Of a stretch of 64,000 bases of DNA, positions 23,061-30,150 are shown piece by piece (the first letter of the stretch is position 1; every line of letters begins with the position of its first letter). The position numbers and the translations under genes were made by a program. Where the stretch lies: assembly GCF_900109575.1 (NCBI RefSeq), contig NZ_FOAF01000006.1, positions 186,001-250,000 on the forward strand, read 5' to 3'. The stretch comes from Olivibacter domesticus. Lineage in GTDB: Bacteria; Bacteroidota; Bacteroidia; Sphingobacteriales; Sphingobacteriaceae. Under the pieces are notes generated by a model. It was given only the letters and a program-made list of their open reading frames with translations, was not told where the DNA came from and searched no databases.

Positions 23061-24554
23061 TTATTGCAAATTAGGATTTTGCTGTACCTCCTCCAATGGA
23101 ATGGCAAACAGGTAGTATTTGCTGTTCGCGACAAAGGGGCTGCCATCTGGTAGGTTGACAATACGATGCCCCTGGCCATTCACCACTTTACTTGCACCGC
23201 TTGGTGTTATCACCGTTACTTTGATAGGGTTTTTATTTGCATCTACATAAGCTTTACGAACTACTGTACCTTGGGTGCGTAGAATGTCTGACAAGGAAAA
23301 ACCTTCTCCCCACAACTCCTTACGTCGTTCTACCAATATGGCCTGAACAAGTTCTTCTTGTGAACCTCCGCTGAACAGAACAGCCTTACGTGCATTTCTG
23401 AGGGCATTCAATGCTTCAATAGCCTGCTGTGTTTGCCCACTACGGGCATATCCTTCTGCTTCGATTAAATACATTTCTGCCGAACGCATGTAGACGATGT
23501 CACCGATGAGGTTAGATTTAAACTTAAACTTTTTATAACGTAGAAATCCTTCACGCCCCTCCTGCCCGTCCCACTCAAATAATTGACTTCGGATATCTTG
23601 CGCATCGAACAGTTCTTTAAAATAAGGATCGGCCATGAAACTATAATAGTACGATCCAGAAGATGATACATCCAAAAAGTGGAACGTATAGCTTGCAGTA
23701 TTCTGTTCGGTTGTTTGGCCATGTCCCCATATCCATTCACTATTCTGTAGATCGTTAAAGCCATCGCTATAATTGACTGCTGCCATTAGTTCATAACCTT
23801 GCCTTGCTGCTTGCGCTGATTGGGCGGCCAGGGCCCACTCACCCATGTTTAGATAGGTACGCGCCAACAAACCATTTACTATCGACTGATCAATTTTGTA
23901 TTTCTCGGCTGACGGACGGCTATAACCTTCAAGATTCACTAAGGCATCTTTTAGATCTGCTGTAATAAGGGCATAAACTTCCTCTAAACTTGCTTTTGGC
24001 TTCCCTTCTGTTTCTACTGTTGTTGGCTCCGTGTATATCGGAACAGCTAAGGCTTGTGGATCTTTTTGATAACTAAATTGATAATAGGTAGCTAAATTTA
24101 GATAGCAAAACGCACGAAGTGCCTCCGCTTGCCCCTTAAGCTGCGCCTTTTTACGCGCATCGCCCTCCGCTGCATCTACCTTTGCTATGACATTATTGCA
24201 ATTATCGATTACTTTATAAAGTAGCGTCCAAAAAGACTTTACGCGATTAGTACTACGATCGAATAACTCGGTAAATGCATAGGCATCGCGGTACCCGTAT
24301 TTGGTGGTGAGGGCTACATCACTTCCCATAGCGTCTCCGGTTCGCATAATTGCGCTATACCCTGGGTTGGCAAAGGTAAAATAGGTGTCATTAAAATAAG
24401 CCCAAGTGCCGTTGATAACGGTTTCTATATTATCTGCCGTTTTATATATTTCTGAATCTGCCACCGCATCTGTGGGCGACGTGTTAAGGTCTTTTTTACA
24501 GCTAACTAATAGTGCTATAAATAGACTTGTGATATATATGATATTTTTGTTCAT
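23061..24554 (-). CDS. SusD/RagB-family nutrient-binding outer-membrane lipoprotein
   Basis: 497 aa. Lipoprotein signal ends LVSC with the acylated cysteine at residue 19. The SusD fold is shown by SEIYKTADNIETVINGTWAY near the N-terminus, AEALRAFCYLNLATYYQ, EVYALITADLKDAL and the C-terminal MYLIEAEGYARSGQTQQAIE plus RRKELWGEGFSLSDILR. It caps the partner SusC pore on the cell surface and captures the ligand. It lies 130 nt after susC, transcribed with it, hence also under the SAM-I riboswitch. The ligand cannot be read from sequence; the regulation argues for a methionine- or sulfur-linked compound. Confidence 0.93.
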   Translation of the reverse strand: MNKNIIYITSLFIALLVSCKKDLNTSPTDAVADSEIYKTADNIETVINGTWAYFNDTYFTFANPGYSAIMRTGDAMGSDVALTTKYGYRDAYAFTELFDRSTNRVKSFWTLLYKVIDNCNNVIAKVDAAEGDARKKAQLKGQAEALRAFCYLNLATYYQFSYQKDPQALAVPIYTEPTTVETEGKPKASLEEVYALITADLKDALVNLEGYSRPSAEKYKIDQSIVNGLLARTYLNMGEWALAAQSAQAARQGYELMAAVNYSDGFNDLQNSEWIWGHGQTTEQNTASYTFHFLDVSSSGSYYYSFMADPYFKELFDAQDIRSQLFEWDGQEGREGFLRYKKFKFKSNLIGDIVYMRSAEMYLIEAEGYARSGQTQQAIEALNALRNARKAVLFSGGSQEELVQAILVERRKELWGEGFSLSDILRTQGTVVRKAYVDANKNPIKVTVITPSGASKVVNGQGHRIVNLPDGSPFVANSKYYLFAIPLEEVQQNPNLQ

Positions 24555-24556
24555 TT

Positions 24557-24605
24557 TAATAATTCGTTATTAGTTATTTGTTATTAGTTGCTAGTCAATT
24601 CACTA
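24557..24605 (-). repeat. Composite repeat R2 (module D only)
   Basis: TTCGTTATTAGTTATTTGTT and following TATTAGTTGCTAG correspond, in reverse, to the AATAACGAATAAC module seen at R1 and R6. Lies between susC and susD. Confidence 0.5.
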
Positions 24606-24684
24606 TATTAATTGCGGAAAGGCGATTTCAATTTCAACCGCGTATGAATTAAGCTACTATATATTTAACACTAACACTTTGCTT

Positions 24685-27600
24685 CTATAACGTTAATTGC
24701 AAACCCGCTGTTATTGATCTCATTGCCGGATACCGGAAATAGGTTGCGCCGTTAACCGTTTGCTCCGGATCCATTCCTTTATGTTTATAAAAGGTAAGTA
24801 GGTTCTCTCCCTGTAAAAATACGCGTAGATTTCCGATGCCTATCCGCTCTATTAAATGCTTAGAGAAATTATAACCCAAACTCACATTCTTCAAGCGGGC
24901 GTAGGTTGCCGAATAAAGGAAACGGGTGGAAGCGGATGTCCAGGTTAAATTATCAGTAGTTAGGCGTGGAACATCTGTATTTGGCTGTTCAGGAGTCCAA
25001 CGATTAAGTATTTCAGTACTCCATGATCTACCAGGGTTGTTTCCGTTATGCATCAATTGTGTATAGTCATTGTCTAAAATTTTGCCCCCTAGGCTAAAGG
25101 TCAATAATGCTGAAAGATCAAAATTCTTATAGGTAAAGGTATTACTCAAACCGCCCACGAGATCTGGCAGTGAGCTCTCTTGAATAAATCGCCCAGCCTC
25201 TCCATATACAGAAGTGGTTTCATTGGTTTGGTTACCTGCATCATCGGCCAGATACCATTGTGGTGATCCTGTAGCTGGGTCTACACCGGCCCATGTTGGC
25301 AAATAAAAATCGTAAATGGAACCACCTACTGCTAATCGTTTATTGCCATTGTCTATAGGCTTATTGTTGTTAGGAAGCTCGGTAATTTTATTTGTATAGT
25401 GATTGAGGTTTAAATCTAAGTTCCAACGGAAGTGCTCGTTACGAATGGGCACCGTTTGCAAATTGACATCTATGCCCTTATTAGTGACAGCACCAATATT
25501 GGCATCATATCCTGAAAAGCCGGTGGAAGGTGCCATGGGGATTGTATATAAGAGATCTTTACTTTTACGGTTGAAGTATTCCACTGTAGCTGCGATACGC
25601 TGGTCGAGGATCGCGATATCTAAACCAACATTAAAGTTAAGGTTGGTTTCCCATTGCAAATCGGGCGTTGGTAAGCGACGCGTAACGGTACCTCCTTGTC
25701 CAAGGTTGTTCGATATAGCATACAAACCTTGATAGGCATAATAAATAGAGGCGCCATCTTGATCTTGTAACTTGTCATTTCCCTGCCCTCCATAACTTGC
25801 CCGTAAGGTTAATTGATCAATCAGGCTGTTATCTTTCAGGAAATCTTCCTGTGAAATTTTCCAGGAACCACCTACCGACCAAAAGGTACCCCACCTGGTT
25901 TCTGGTGCAAAACGGGAAGAACCATCGGTCCGCAAGGAACCGGATAAGAAATAACGACCCTTGTAATCATATTCTGCACGCCCCAAAAAACTTAGCAGGC
26001 TATAATCGACTGAAAAACCGTTAAATGAATTCAGCTGTGAGGCTGCATCTGGCTCGTAAAAACCGGGCAGTACAAAACGTTCGCGACTGCCATCGATGTC
26101 GGTATTCTGATATTTATAAAATTCCTGGCCCGCCAATAGGTTCAAATGGTGATCATTGAAAGTTTTGTCGTACGTAATAATGTTATTCCAAGTGTAAGAT
26201 ACTCTCCTGCGATTGGATTTGCTTACAGAACCTTGGTATTCAGCTCCGTCACCCAATACAGGATTTACATAGTCATGTGTGTTCCTATTCAGGTAATCGA
26301 TACTATAGGTAGTACGAAACTTTAGTTCGGGGGTAATAATCGCTTCTAAAAAGGCTCTACCCGAAAGATTTTCGCTTTGCCGATCATTCTTATCAAGCGG
26401 AAGGGAGGCTGCCATGTTGCTGCGCGGAATAGCAGCGCTTGGCCGGTATTCTCCAAAGTCATAGATTTTATTGCCGTTTTCATCGTAACGATAGGATCCA
26501 TCGTTGTTCCGCTCATAATATGGATAGAAGGAGGCGACTAAGCGCGGAAAATTCACGATATTGGCGGTGTTGCTATCTTCGGACTGCGGGAACTTCTGTT
26601 GGGAACTGCTCACCGCGACATTCAAGCCCGCGTTTAACCATTTTTTTGCCTGTGTAGTCACATTGATACGCGCGTTATAGCGTTTAAAACCGGATTCGAT
26701 GGCTATACCTTGATCGTTTAAATAACCACCTGAAAAATAATAACTGCTTTTTTCATTGCCGCCGCTGAAGCTAAGATCTGCTTGTGTACGTTGCCCCGTG
26801 CGCTGTAATACATCGGCCCAGTTGTCATTCCAAAGCGGTGCCGCGCCGGCTACGATGCGCCCGTCTAAACCTACCGGATTGGGGTAGTTGGAGCCATATG
26901 GATTAATATTAAGATCAGTTAATACCTGACTGCTTGCATTCTGTGCTGCTTGATCGCTGGTTAAACCGCTGGAAAGATTTTTATTACGTAAAGCTTCCCA
27001 GTATAACTCAAAATACTGATTGGTACTTACCTGTTCATAATCTTTTACGGCTCTATCAGATATGCCCTGTGTGAAATTGAAATTGATAGTAGTTTTACCG
27101 TCTTTCTGCCCTTCTTTGGTTGTGATAATGATAACGCCATTGGCGCCCCTAGATCCATATAAGGCGCTCGCTGCTGCATCTTTTAATACACTAATGGATT
27201 TGATATCATTGGGGTTAATTGCATTAATATCTCCTTCATAAGGGTTTCCATCGAGCACATATAAAGGAGAGCTGGAAGCATTAATGGAACCGATTCCGCG
27301 AATACGGATCTCCGCATCAGTACCTGGTTGCCCGGATGAAGAGACAGATTGTAACCCGGGTACCAAGCCTTGCAATGCTTTACTGACATTGCCTACCGGC
27401 CTGTTTGTTATCTTATCTTGCGGTATGGATGCTACAGACCCCGTAAAATTTGCTCTATTGGCGGTACCATAAGCTACTACGACTACTTCATTCAAGTCGT
27501 TGCTGGCTGGTTTAAGGGCTACTGTAAGATTGGCAACGCTTACATCTACTTCTTGTGGTTCATAACCTATGTAACTGAACCGTAATTTGATTTGCCCTGC

Positions 27601-27825
27601 TGGAACGGAAATGGAAAATTGTCCGTCTTGATTGGTATGGGCCGATTGGGTACCCCCCACTAAAACGATATTAACACCGGGTAGGGGTTCTTGATTAAAT
27701 GCATCTGTTACGGTACCTTGTACCGCCGTTTCTTGTGCATAGCTATTACTCAGATTGACAAGTAATATCAATAACAATAGAAATGAGCATGCGTTAAATT
27801 TGTTTAGTAACGTTTTTCTGTTCAT
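24685..27825 (-). CDS. SusC/RagA-family TonB-dependent outer-membrane receptor, S-box controlled
   Basis: 1046 aa from the ATG at 27823-27825; an upstream in-frame ATG (27858) would add 11 residues ahead of a good signal peptide (MNRKTLLNKFNACSF...SNSYAQ), so the inner start is preferred. After the signal come a carboxypeptidase-regulatory-like beta domain (VQGTVTDAFNQEPLPGVNIV), a TonB-box-like EVVVVAYGT, the plug with LYVLDGNPYEGDINAI and ASALYGSRGANGVIIITTK, the SusC signature, and a barrel ending AGLQLTL. There is no STN domain, so no anti-sigma signalling. It imports a ligand bound by SusD using TonB energy. A SAM-I aptamer lies in its leader (27935-28037). Confidence 0.95.
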   Translation of the reverse strand: MNRKTLLNKFNACSFLLLLILLVNLSNSYAQETAVQGTVTDAFNQEPLPGVNIVLVGGTQSAHTNQDGQFSISVPAGQIKLRFSYIGYEPQEVDVSVANLTVALKPASNDLNEVVVVAYGTANRANFTGSVASIPQDKITNRPVGNVSKALQGLVPGLQSVSSSGQPGTDAEIRIRGIGSINASSSPLYVLDGNPYEGDINAINPNDIKSISVLKDAAASALYGSRGANGVIIITTKEGQKDGKTTINFNFTQGISDRAVKDYEQVSTNQYFELYWEALRNKNLSSGLTSDQAAQNASSQVLTDLNINPYGSNYPNPVGLDGRIVAGAAPLWNDNWADVLQRTGQRTQADLSFSGGNEKSSYYFSGGYLNDQGIAIESGFKRYNARINVTTQAKKWLNAGLNVAVSSSQQKFPQSEDSNTANIVNFPRLVASFYPYYERNNDGSYRYDENGNKIYDFGEYRPSAAIPRSNMAASLPLDKNDRQSENLSGRAFLEAIITPELKFRTTYSIDYLNRNTHDYVNPVLGDGAEYQGSVSKSNRRRVSYTWNNIITYDKTFNDHHLNLLAGQEFYKYQNTDIDGSRERFVLPGFYEPDAASQLNSFNGFSVDYSLLSFLGRAEYDYKGRYFLSGSLRTDGSSRFAPETRWGTFWSVGGSWKISQEDFLKDNSLIDQLTLRASYGGQGNDKLQDQDGASIYYAYQGLYAISNNLGQGGTVTRRLPTPDLQWETNLNFNVGLDIAILDQRIAATVEYFNRKSKDLLYTIPMAPSTGFSGYDANIGAVTNKGIDVNLQTVPIRNEHFRWNLDLNLNHYTNKITELPNNNKPIDNGNKRLAVGGSIYDFYLPTWAGVDPATGSPQWYLADDAGNQTNETTSVYGEAGRFIQESSLPDLVGGLSNTFTYKNFDLSALLTFSLGGKILDNDYTQLMHNGNNPGRSWSTEILNRWTPEQPNTDVPRLTTDNLTWTSASTRFLYSATYARLKNVSLGYNFSKHLIERIGIGNLRVFLQGENLLTFYKHKGMDPEQTVNGATYFRYPAMRSITAGLQLTL

Positions 27826-27934
27826 ATGAAAAATTTTAAATGAACGCAGCAATGCCATACAATGCTTGTGGCAAGATGTTGGTTGGATGCGAAGGGAACC
27901 GTATCTAATCCGGAATTGGATAGGAACCTGTTCG

Positions 27935-28037
27935 ACTTATCGGCTCTGCATTTTGCAGAAAGGAATTAGCACCTTGCGCATGGGCTACGGGTTGCTAAGA
28001 TTTCATAGGGCCTTTCCCTCCATCTTTCTTGATAAGT
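27935..28037 (-). ncRNA. SAM-I (S-box) riboswitch aptamer in the susC leader
   Basis: Read on the minus strand. P1 is ACTTATC (28031-28037) paired with GATAAGT (27935-27941). In between come the invariant blocks in order: GATGGAGGGA, GGCCCTATGAAAT, TTAGCAACCC, then AAGGTGCTAATTCC, then the P4 hairpin CTGCA-AAA-TGCAG. This is a complete match to the SAM-I consensus, including the purine-rich kink-turn side of P2 and the A/U-rich SAM pocket. Downstream (27826-27934) there is a small hairpin but no U-tract, so control of translation or a non-canonical terminator is more likely than simple intrinsic termination. Expected effect: susC/susD expressed when S-adenosylmethionine is low. Confidence 0.95.
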
Positions 28038-28062
28038 ATGTTTTGTTAGCGTTTTGATGACG

Positions 28063-28070
28063 CAAATATA
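28063..28070 (-). promoter_or_regulatory. Candidate -7 element of the riboswitch-susCD transcript
   Basis: TATATTTG on the minus strand, 26 nt upstream of the aptamer P1; predicted start of transcription about 28056. A clear -33 box was not found. Confidence 0.5.
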
Positions 28071-28124: not shown

Positions 28125-28262
28125 ATTAATAGTTGCGAGTTGCCGGTTGCGAGTTGCCAGTTATGAGTTGCCAGTTATGAGTTGTGAGTTTGGTATTGAA
28201 AACTCAACTATTGAACAACTCAACCATTTAACAATTCAACTACTTAACAATTTAACATTAGC
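28125..28262 (-). repeat. Composite modular repeat R3
   Basis: On the plus strand GAGTTGCCAGTTATGAGTTG occurs in tandem variants (module B reversed), followed by AACTCAACTATTGAACAACT and similar phrases (module C reversed). Begins about 10 nt past the stop of the small lipoprotein gene. Confidence 0.8.
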
Positions 28263-28770: not shown

Positions 28771-30150
28771 TTATAGCGCATTTTCTAATTTGTAAACCCA
28801 CGCATAATTGGATGGTGTAGTTGCAGGACTAAGCGCTGTTGGTATGATCTGTAGCTGACTGCCTTTATATTGGGTTTTAATTGTTCCTGTATATCCTAAC
28901 AAGCTTATACTGCTTGGTTTTTTAATATTTTTTACCCTAATCGGCATATCCGTCCATTTGGTACAGAGCACGTACAGATCCTTGCCCTTACGTGTATAGT
29001 AAACACTATTTGCTTTCATATCCGCAGGCCTACTATCCCAAGCTTGCGTATCATAGATGGCCTCCCCATTGAGCGCTAACCAGTTGCCCATATCTAACAA
29101 CCGCTCTTGCATAATGACCGGTATCATGCCATCGGCGGTTGGGCCTACATTCAACAATAGATTTCCACCATTACTGACCTTATCAATCAAGAGATCGATT
29201 AATTGCTTCGAGCTAAAATAGTGGTCGGTCGTTTCAAAACGATTATAACCATAGGATGTACCAATACCTCTACTTTCTTCCCAAGGGTGAGCGGCTTGAT
29301 CGCCGATGCCTTTTTGATCATGTACTAAATCATACTCAGTGGTATAGTATCCGCCATGTTTGCTGCGCGTTTCTTTACCCCAACGATCGTTTACTACTAC
29401 GGTCTCTTTTACGGGCGATTCATTGTATAACCAGGCAAGGAATTCGGCACTTTTCAATGTGTCGCTAGCATAATCCCATTCGCCATCTGAAAAAATCACT
29501 TCTGGTTGATAGGCGTTTACCAGCTCCTTCATCTGAGGGATCATATGCTGATCGACCCATTGATTGATAGTTTCCTTTTTATATAGGGGGTGACTCCATT
29601 CAAGTAGGGAATAATAAAATCCCATATGTAGGCCCGACTTTTTTACCGCATCACTTAACTCACCGGCAAGATCTCGATGGGCACCGATTGCTACACTGTT
29701 CCACTTCGGACTGTACTGACTAGGCCATAAGCAGAAACCGTCATGATGCTTGGAGGTCAGTACCACATATTTTGCACCGGCTTTCTTAAATAGTGTTGCC
29801 CACTTATTTGGATTGAAATGCTCGGCCTTGAACATGGGAGCAAAATCCTGATAAGTGAAATTTTCTCCGTATGTTCTACGATGGTAATCCATAAACAATT
29901 TGTTTTTACTGATTAACCGATTTTCATAGTGTTCTGCATATTTTTCATATACGCCTTCTACTTCATCAACAGGTGCATAAGCAGGTACAGAATAGGGCCC
30001 CCAATGTATAAATATACCGAACTTAGCATTGCTCCACCACGCGGGTGTTTCACGTGTATCAACGGAAGGCCAGTTGGGCTGATAGGTTTGGCCATTTAAT
30101 TCGCGTACGGCTAACAAGCTTAAAAACAGGAAACAACAGTATCTGATCAT
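28771..30150 (-). CDS. GH29 alpha-L-fucosidase, secreted
   Basis: 459 aa with a signal peptide (about residues 1-20). GH29 features: FGIFIHWGPYSVPAYAP at 44-60, KYVVLTSKHHDGFCLWPS at 127-144, and PEVIFSDGEWDYA, where the aspartate near residue 222 is in the position of the GH29 catalytic nucleophile. The TIM barrel fills most of the protein and a short beta region ends it; there is no extra carbohydrate-binding domain. It hydrolyses terminal alpha-L-fucose from glycans, probably in the periplasm. It is 38 nt downstream of a small membrane protein gene. It is transcribed toward susCD but separated from it by the riboswitch leader, so it is probably not in the same regulon. Confidence 0.93.
   Translation of the reverse strand: MIRYCCFLFLSLLAVRELNGQTYQPNWPSVDTRETPAWWSNAKFGIFIHWGPYSVPAYAPVDEVEGVYEKYAEHYENRLISKNKLFMDYHRRTYGENFTYQDFAPMFKAEHFNPNKWATLFKKAGAKYVVLTSKHHDGFCLWPSQYSPKWNSVAIGAHRDLAGELSDAVKKSGLHMGFYYSLLEWSHPLYKKETINQWVDQHMIPQMKELVNAYQPEVIFSDGEWDYASDTLKSAEFLAWLYNESPVKETVVVNDRWGKETRSKHGGYYTTEYDLVHDQKGIGDQAAHPWEESRGIGTSYGYNRFETTDHYFSSKQLIDLLIDKVSNGGNLLLNVGPTADGMIPVIMQERLLDMGNWLALNGEAIYDTQAWDSRPADMKANSVYYTRKGKDLYVLCTKWTDMPIRVKNIKKPSSISLLGYTGTIKTQYKGSQLQIIPTALSPATTPSNYAWVYKLENAL

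What the first reader, a model, noticed from the sequence alone, without database searches (positions are those of the whole stretch)
23061..28070. SAM-I (S-box) riboswitch controlling a SusC/SusD outer-membrane pair
Seen: a complete SAM-I aptamer on the minus strand (27935-28037; P1 pairing, GATGGAGGGA, CCTATGAAAT, AGCAACCC, AAGGTGCTAATTCC and P4) lies between a -7 box and the susC start. Known: SAM-I riboswitches usually control methionine/SAM synthesis and methionine transport genes; SusCD pairs usually take up glycans or peptides and are mostly controlled by ECF sigma/anti-sigma or hybrid two-component systems. Inference: this pair imports a methionine-, SAM- or sulfur-linked compound when SAM is low. 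The receptor has no STN domain, in line with RNA control. I do not know whether such linkage has been described for this family.
Basis: partly seen in the sequence, partly recalled or inferred. Interest (0 to 1): 0.8.

Follow-up and report, generated by a model that had tools for sequence, protein, structure and literature searches.

The report
SAM-sensing switch on outer-membrane importer
A standard RNA switch that senses the methionine product SAM sits in front of a SusC/SusD nutrient importer in an Olivibacter-like bacterium and in several relatives, which suggests that this importer, of a kind usually tied to sugars, brings in a methionine or sulfur source, perhaps peptides.

Summary
A complete SAM-I aptamer (RF00162, 80.3 bits, cut-off 44.4) lies at 27934-28038 (-), behind a Bacteroidota -7 box and ahead of susC-susD. 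The genome search found three SAM-I elements; the other two precede metY-metX-hom and metH-metF, so the importer shares the methionine biosynthesis switch. At least 56 SusC genes pass the family cut-off in this genome.

The linkage recurs. Of 80 fetched SusD relatives, SAM-I precedes susC in Olivibacter jilunii (1 of 1) and Chryseobacterium/Elizabethkingia (44 of 44); it is missing in Sphingobacterium (0 of 23), Pedobacter (0 of 9) and Chitinophaga (0 of 2), and decayed in Arcticibacter. Three more distant members in family genomes are also in SAM-I operons, two of them with a peptidase and a redoxin. A second, distantly related SusCD lineage carries SAM-I too.

Most likely high SAM turns the pair off, so it imports a methionine/sulfur source, best guess peptides; substrate, SAM binding and repression are inferred. 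Chryseobacterium-type leaders look like SAM-dependent terminators in part of the species; in the window the off-switch stays unresolved. Ten searches of an open-access library (listings capped) showed no report of SAM-I controlling SusCD.

The parts
28063..28070 (-). -7 box TATATTTG; predicted transcription start near 28058
   Evidence: TAnnTTTG match 32 nt before the aptamer, kept in O. jilunii; consensus and its place -12 to -5 as given for F. psychrophilum in PMC9723704 passages
27934..28038 (-). SAM-I riboswitch aptamer, RF00162
   Evidence: 80.3 bits, gathering score 44.4, whole model; 99.7 bits with a model built from 21 family aptamers, this one included
27826..27933 (-). leader between aptamer and susC; holds the expression platform, which could not be resolved
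   Evidence: no convincing terminator and no P1-dependent start-codon access
24685..27825 (-). susC, TonB-dependent SusC/RagA receptor, 1046 aa
   Evidence: TIGR04056 883.5 bits, TIGR04057, Pfam Plug and CarbopepD_reg_2
23061..24554 (-). susD, surface lipoprotein, 497 aa
   Evidence: Pfam SusD_RagB and SusD-like_3; 3lew and 3snx at 398 bits

Best explanation
The SAM-I aptamer is the first structured part of the susCD mRNA. When SAM is plentiful the aptamer closes and susC-susD is switched off; when SAM falls the importer is made together with MetY/MetX/Hom and MetH/MetF. SusCD is therefore the uptake arm of the methionine regulon and brings a methionine or other sulfur amino-acid source through the outer membrane, most likely peptides. 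Shown by computation: the aptamer, its promoter context, the shared regulon, recurrence of the linkage. Inferred: SAM binding, direction of control (from the known behaviour of SAM-I, recalled) and substrate. Rough odds: working switch 0.9; methionine- or sulfur-linked substrate 0.7; peptides in particular 0.5. Whether the window's off-switch is termination or blocked translation is not settled.
For: Full RF00162 match. Three SAM-I in the genome, the other two before metY-metX-hom and metH-metF. SAM-I before the orthologous susC in O. jilunii and 44 of 44 Chryseobacterium/Elizabethkingia loci; Rfam's own model agrees for 7 of 7 of these put to it. In 34 family-level genomes, 4 of the 5 SusD matches of 380 bits or more lie in SAM-I operons, none of the 23 weaker ones within 10 kb of a listed SAM-I. 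A TAnnTTTG box within 60 nt upstream of the aptamer in 49 of 49 leaders, shuffles 212 of 2450. Of 98 family SAM-I places 63 have a methionine biosynthesis gene first. Window-type operons L138 and L177 hold an M28 or M20 peptidase and a redoxin.
Against: No SAM-I in 23 Sphingobacterium, 9 Pedobacter and 2 Chitinophaga orthologues nor before a 53% identical homologue in genus mate G004, so the linkage is not essential to the family. No platform found in the window or O. jilunii. The third window-type operon, L149, has neither peptidase nor redoxin, and the window pair stands alone. None of 40 SAM-I places chosen outside the family precedes SusCD. Close SusD relatives are deposited as putative carbohydrate binders.
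Confidence: 0.6

Rival explanations
1. The switch works as above, but the pair imports a cofactor needed to make methionine, such as folate or a corrinoid, rather than a sulfur compound.
For: MetH and MetF share the switch. The M28/TFR_dimer and M20 peptidases of related SAM-I operons belong to superfamilies that, as I recall, include folate hydrolases.
Against: Redoxins in the same operons do not fit folate uptake; both peptidase families are broad; no folate or cobalamin gene was seen beside the pair in the window ORF list.
Confidence: 0.12
2. The pair imports a glycan or sulfated compound, and SAM-I control reflects sulfur demand rather than methionine uptake.
For: SusCD pairs mostly import glycans (recalled); an alpha-L-fucosidase gene lies upstream at 28771-30150 (-).
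Against: In O. jilunii a phospholipase gene on the other strand lies between the fucosidase and the pair, so they are not a fixed unit; no sulfatase or glycosidase follows susD in the window; related SAM-I operons hold peptidases instead.
Confidence: 0.12
3. The aptamer is a relic or nearly idle element and does not regulate susCD in this species.
For: No clear platform in the two Olivibacter leaders; the element is absent or decayed in sister lineages.
Against: The window aptamer is full length and carries the columns invariant among 21 aptamers, itself included; O. jilunii keeps it too although its SusC has drifted to 84% identity. A relic would be expected to decay as in Arcticibacter.
Confidence: 0.08

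Closest known systems
SAM-I (S-box) riboswitch, RF00162
   Same: Sequence and structure of the whole aptamer; same genome uses it before methionine biosynthesis genes
   Different: Target is an outer-membrane SusCD importer instead of a biosynthesis gene or an inner-membrane transporter (usual targets recalled)
Cobalamin-riboswitch-controlled outer-membrane B12 receptors of Bacteroidota
   Same: A riboswitch for the end product sits before a TonB-dependent importer (passages of PMC6143338, and PMC9723704)
   Different: Ligand and riboswitch class differ; here the receptor is SusC with a SusD lid and the imported compound is unknown
RagAB, oligopeptide SusCD of Porphyromonas gingivalis
   Same: RagA is the best solved relative of SusC (417.8 bits)
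   Different: Only slightly ahead of other SusC proteins (411.8 and 372.3 bits); RagB is a weak SusD match (36.7 bits)
SusD proteins 3lew and 3snx (3snx recalled as BT1439 of Bacteroides thetaiotaomicron)
   Same: Closest solved SusD relatives, 398 bits each over nearly the whole protein
   Different: Deposited as putative carbohydrate binders. BT1439: insertion mutant grows slowly, gene cited as important in mono-colonised mice and for vancomycin uptake (PMC9758874 passages). Among the 14 control genomes SAM-I rings in three, none a Bacteroides; one search names Bacteroides ihuae as a control

Membership tests
SAM-I riboswitch (RF00162) | Covariance-model score over the curated gathering score, whole model | tested here: met
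   80.3 against 44.4 bits, positions 1-108 of 108
SAM-I riboswitch (RF00162) | In the 5' leader, same strand, behind a promoter | tested here: met
   -7 box 32 nt upstream, susC ATG 109 nt downstream
SAM-I riboswitch (RF00162) | Expression platform that responds to P1 | tested here: inconclusive
   Window and O. jilunii: none found. Weeksellaceae orthologues: P1-dependent hairpin in 18 of 44
SAM-I riboswitch (RF00162) | Binds SAM and lowers expression | not testable with these tools
   needs in-line probing and expression tests
SusC/RagA receptor | TIGR04056 over its cut-off and TIGR04057 signature | tested here: met
   883.5 against 368.25 and 64.9 against 46.2 bits
SusD/RagB lipoprotein | Pfam SusD_RagB and SusD-like_3 over gathering score, next to susC | tested here: met
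   61.5 against 23.1 and 52.3 against 27 bits; genes 130 nt apart
Starch SusD or sialic-acid NanU | NCBIfam NF033071 or NF033072 over cut-off | tested here: not met
   33.3 against 725 and 26.9 against 425 bits
RagAB-type peptide importer | Both partners closest to RagA and RagB; peptide bound | tested here: inconclusive
   RagA first for SusC, RagB weak for SusD; peptide binding not testable here

The most novel reading that the evidence does not exclude
Two distantly related SusCD lineages of Bacteroidota have become outer-membrane importers of methionine or sulfur-containing peptides under direct SAM sensing, partnered in some operons by peptidases and redoxins. This would be a riboswitch-defined, non-glycan class of SusCD and would give a nutrient to an orphan family with close relatives in Bacteroides.
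Probability: 0.42. Interest if true: 0.72.

Novelty: new variant of a known kind. Interest (0 to 1): 0.55.

Why it matters
SusCD substrates are mostly guessed from neighbouring glycan enzymes, and this pair has none in its own unit. A riboswitch names the metabolite that should shut the importer off, so it points to the nutrient. If right, it links a patchy orphan SusCD family (Sphingobacteriaceae, Weeksellaceae, close solved relatives in the PDB) to methionine nutrition and gives a clean, testable prediction.

Tried and rejected
Translation control in the window: the start-codon region is equally open with P1 on or off in the window (mean unpaired 0.60 and 0.60) and in O. jilunii (0.58 and 0.61), so I do not claim it.

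A terminator in the window leader: one weak five-pair hairpin, none in O. jilunii; dinucleotide shuffles of the 46 leaders give such hits in 210 of 1840. A separate scan finds terminator-like sites at background and none in the leader.

One origin or several for the aptamers: the aptamer trees are poorly resolved (75 rows; 70 rows after five were dropped) and the AU test does not reject one clade for the window-type aptamers (p 0.126), so this stays open.

Another riboswitch in place of SAM-I in negative orthologues: none in the leader of the 8 loci put to Rfam. SAM-I remnants: of 36 leaders searched with four short patterns only Arcticibacter L098 has any.

Orthologues in the wider class: at E 1e-100 none in 246 other genomes, so the family is patchy; a weaker cut-off was not tried there.

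Literature: ten searches. Listings were capped (for example 20 of 555 and 15 of 2,918), and the term SusC also matched words such as susceptible. Of the three papers I looked at passages of two. None of what I saw describes SAM-I before SusCD; most subscription papers are not held.

Structure of SusD: no model was obtained, so there is no fold comparison.
Full report
1. Observation. Rfam finds one family over its gathering score in the 64-kb window: SAM-I, RF00162, at 27934-28038 (-), 80.3 bits against 44.4, whole model. Downstream on the same strand are susC (24685-27825; the mechanical ORF starts at 27858, but the ATG at 27825 is the one conserved in O. jilunii) and susD (23061-24554). NCBIfam and Pfam confirm both. 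A TAnnTTTG box starts 32 nt before the aptamer. Such a box lies within 60 nt upstream of the aptamer in 49 of 49 SAM-I SusCD leaders examined (window, G001, 44 Weeksellaceae, L138, L149, L177), against 212 of 2450 mononucleotide shuffles; it starts 12 to 38 nt upstream, and at 12 nt in 9 of the 44 Weeksellaceae leaders. The aptamer is thus placed to be the first structured element of the mRNA.

2. The regulon in this genome. The genome search finds SAM-I three times. The other two precede metY-metX-hom (L004) and metH, a small ORF and metF (L005); these gene names are my reading of the proteins, not a family search. At least 56 SusC genes pass TIGR04056 (56 of 215 first-look candidates were scored, so this is a lower bound); the window SusC is the only one of those 56 placed beside a SAM-I. 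The genome is very probably an Olivibacter: genus mate G001 has a contig of the same length, 1,443,183, as NZ_LR027848.1 of Olivibacter jilunii P8502, and the two leaders are identical over the stretch compared.

3. Conservation of the linkage. A scan of named genomes with SusD returned 212 relatives, of which the best 80 were kept. A covariance model built from 21 family aptamers, the window's and G001's included, finds SAM-I upstream of the orthologous susC in Olivibacter jilunii (1 of 1) and in Chryseobacterium and Elizabethkingia (44 of 44), in none of 23 Sphingobacterium, 9 Pedobacter and 2 Chitinophaga loci, and as a weak 41-bit match in Arcticibacter. Two more matches (E 0.34 and 0.65, elsewhere in L090 and L071) are at chance level. 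Rfam's own model confirms 7 of 7 Weeksellaceae loci put to it and does not pass the Arcticibacter element. That element keeps the 5' half and has lost most of the 3' half, so it looks like a decayed riboswitch.

4. The family genomes. With the window SusD as query over 34 genomes of the same family code (at most 45 candidates scored per genome), 28 matches reach E 1e-40. Five score 380 bits or more; four of these lie in SAM-I operons (G001, G028, G075, G007) and one does not (G004, 53% identical, no SAM-I in the 14 kb around it). None of the 23 weaker matches lies within 10 kb of a SAM-I place or 27 (my comparison of coordinates). Window SusC is 52% identical to that of L138 (G075) over almost its whole length. 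A SusC tree of 52 rows (35 of 78 available orthologues, the window, 11 SAM-I SusC proteins, 5 others; quick method) puts L138, L149 and L177 in one 40-row group with the orthologues (support 100) and needs at least 4 changes of SAM-I state. In it Arcticibacter was scored as having SAM-I, and the program warns of long branches. Trees cannot tell gain from loss; the Arcticibacter relic favours loss in some lineages. Aptamer trees do not settle whether the element was attached once or more often (AU p 0.126).

5. What else SAM-I controls. It is found in 298 of 301 family genomes and 178 of 247 genomes of the class. I classified the genes behind all 98 places in 30 family genomes; 8 of the 30 were picked because they hold many copies, so shares are biased. 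By first gene: metY-like 24, metH 24, metE 5, metX 4, hom-like 4, metF 2 (63 in all); SusC-containing operons 11; cysteine-desulfurase-like 6; two-domain redoxin ahead of YceI, MauG and a TonB receptor 4 places (3 arrays); redoxin 2; DUF4833 2; peroxiredoxin, OsmC, DsbD_N and PAPS reductase 1 each; none called 6 (met names by clustering with the window genome's genes, metE recalled; Pfam names, rest of each cluster by similarity). Among the 30 loci fetched, the best-scoring ones, 15 have SusC downstream and 3 a redoxin and then SusC. Seven of the 11 SusC operons have another SusD type, PF12771 (three members scanned); the SusC of one of them, L125, is only distantly related to the window's (37% over 244 residues). 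L138, L149 and L177 are the window type. L156 has a protein that Pfam does not name. An M28 peptidase with TFR_dimer occurs in L138 and L156, an M20 peptidase in L177, redoxins in L134, L135, L136, L138, L156 and L177 (L135 and L136 by cluster); L149 has neither. Of 40 places chosen outside the family none precedes SusCD; one precedes an amino-acid permease (L239) and one a redoxin with a class V aminotransferase-type protein (L223).

6. How it may switch. In Weeksellaceae leaders a hairpin, often CCCUUUGC...GCAAAGGG, followed by a U-rich stretch lies between aptamer and susC in 33 of 44 by a strict scan; dinucleotide shuffles of all 46 leaders scanned give 210 of 1840. With P1 enforced the best hairpin has probability over 0.5 in 39 of 44; with the 5' strand of P1 blocked it is under 0.5 in 23 of 44; both hold in 18 of 44. 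In the control, with eight other aptamer bases blocked, it is under 0.5 in 16 of 44, and in 11 of those 39. Median probabilities are 0.976 (P1 on), 0.27 (P1 off) and 0.83 (control). This fits SAM-dependent termination in part of the species, not all. In the window and O. jilunii neither a convincing terminator nor a start-codon trap emerges. PMC2258182 (passages) says that translation attenuation is the commonest riboswitch mechanism outside Firmicutes, so either is possible.

7. Substrate. The best solved relatives are RagA for SusC (417.8 bits, just ahead of other SusC proteins) and 3lew and 3snx for SusD (398 bits). I recall 3snx as BT1439. PMC9758874 (passages) reports slow growth of a BT1439 insertion mutant and cites the gene as important in mono-colonised mice and for uptake of vancomycin, a peptide-like compound. 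Together with peptidases in two of three window-type SAM-I operons this favours peptides, but it is inference. In the window susD is followed by a convergent gene, so the pair is a two-gene unit and gives no substrate hint by itself.

8. Known or new. The aptamer is an ordinary RF00162 member, and riboswitch control of outer-membrane importers is known for cobalamin (passages). I saw no description of SAM-I before SusCD in ten searches of the open-access library, whose listings were capped and which lacks most subscription papers. I rate it a new variant of a known kind.

Noticed in passing
L098 4750-4825: Arcticibacter susC leader holds a decayed SAM-I element: 5' half intact, most of the 3' half gone.
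   Followed up: yes
L161 301-416 and 1034-1137; G293:C16:35018 and 36227: SAM-I elements in tandem, 0.7 to 1.2 kb apart, ahead of a redoxin, YceI, MauG-type peroxidase and TonB-receptor array; in G293 a DsbD_N gene lies between them.
   Followed up: partly
G144:C10:152610-153795; G087:C2:920232-921266: Two divergent SAM-I elements about 0.9 to 1 kb apart; one of each pair precedes a DUF4833 gene.
   Followed up: no
L128, L129, L133, L148, L153, L183; L223: SAM-I before cysteine-desulfurase-like class V aminotransferase genes, with a redoxin in L153 and L223: a sulfur and thiol side of the SAM-I regulon.
   Followed up: partly
L239 7275-8804 (-): SAM-I before an amino-acid permease gene in another family of the class, a candidate inner-membrane methionine transporter.
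   Followed up: no
L118 4570-7983: A Pedobacter cryoconitis orthologue of the SusC has an STN domain and no SAM-I, as if one mode of control had replaced the other.
   Followed up: partly
28131-28257: Imperfect 14- and 16-base tandem repeats just upstream of the susC promoter region.
   Followed up: no
L045 10020-14586: Olivibacter jilunii has another SusC-SusD pair on the opposite strand downstream of the SAM-I pair, which the window lacks.
   Followed up: no
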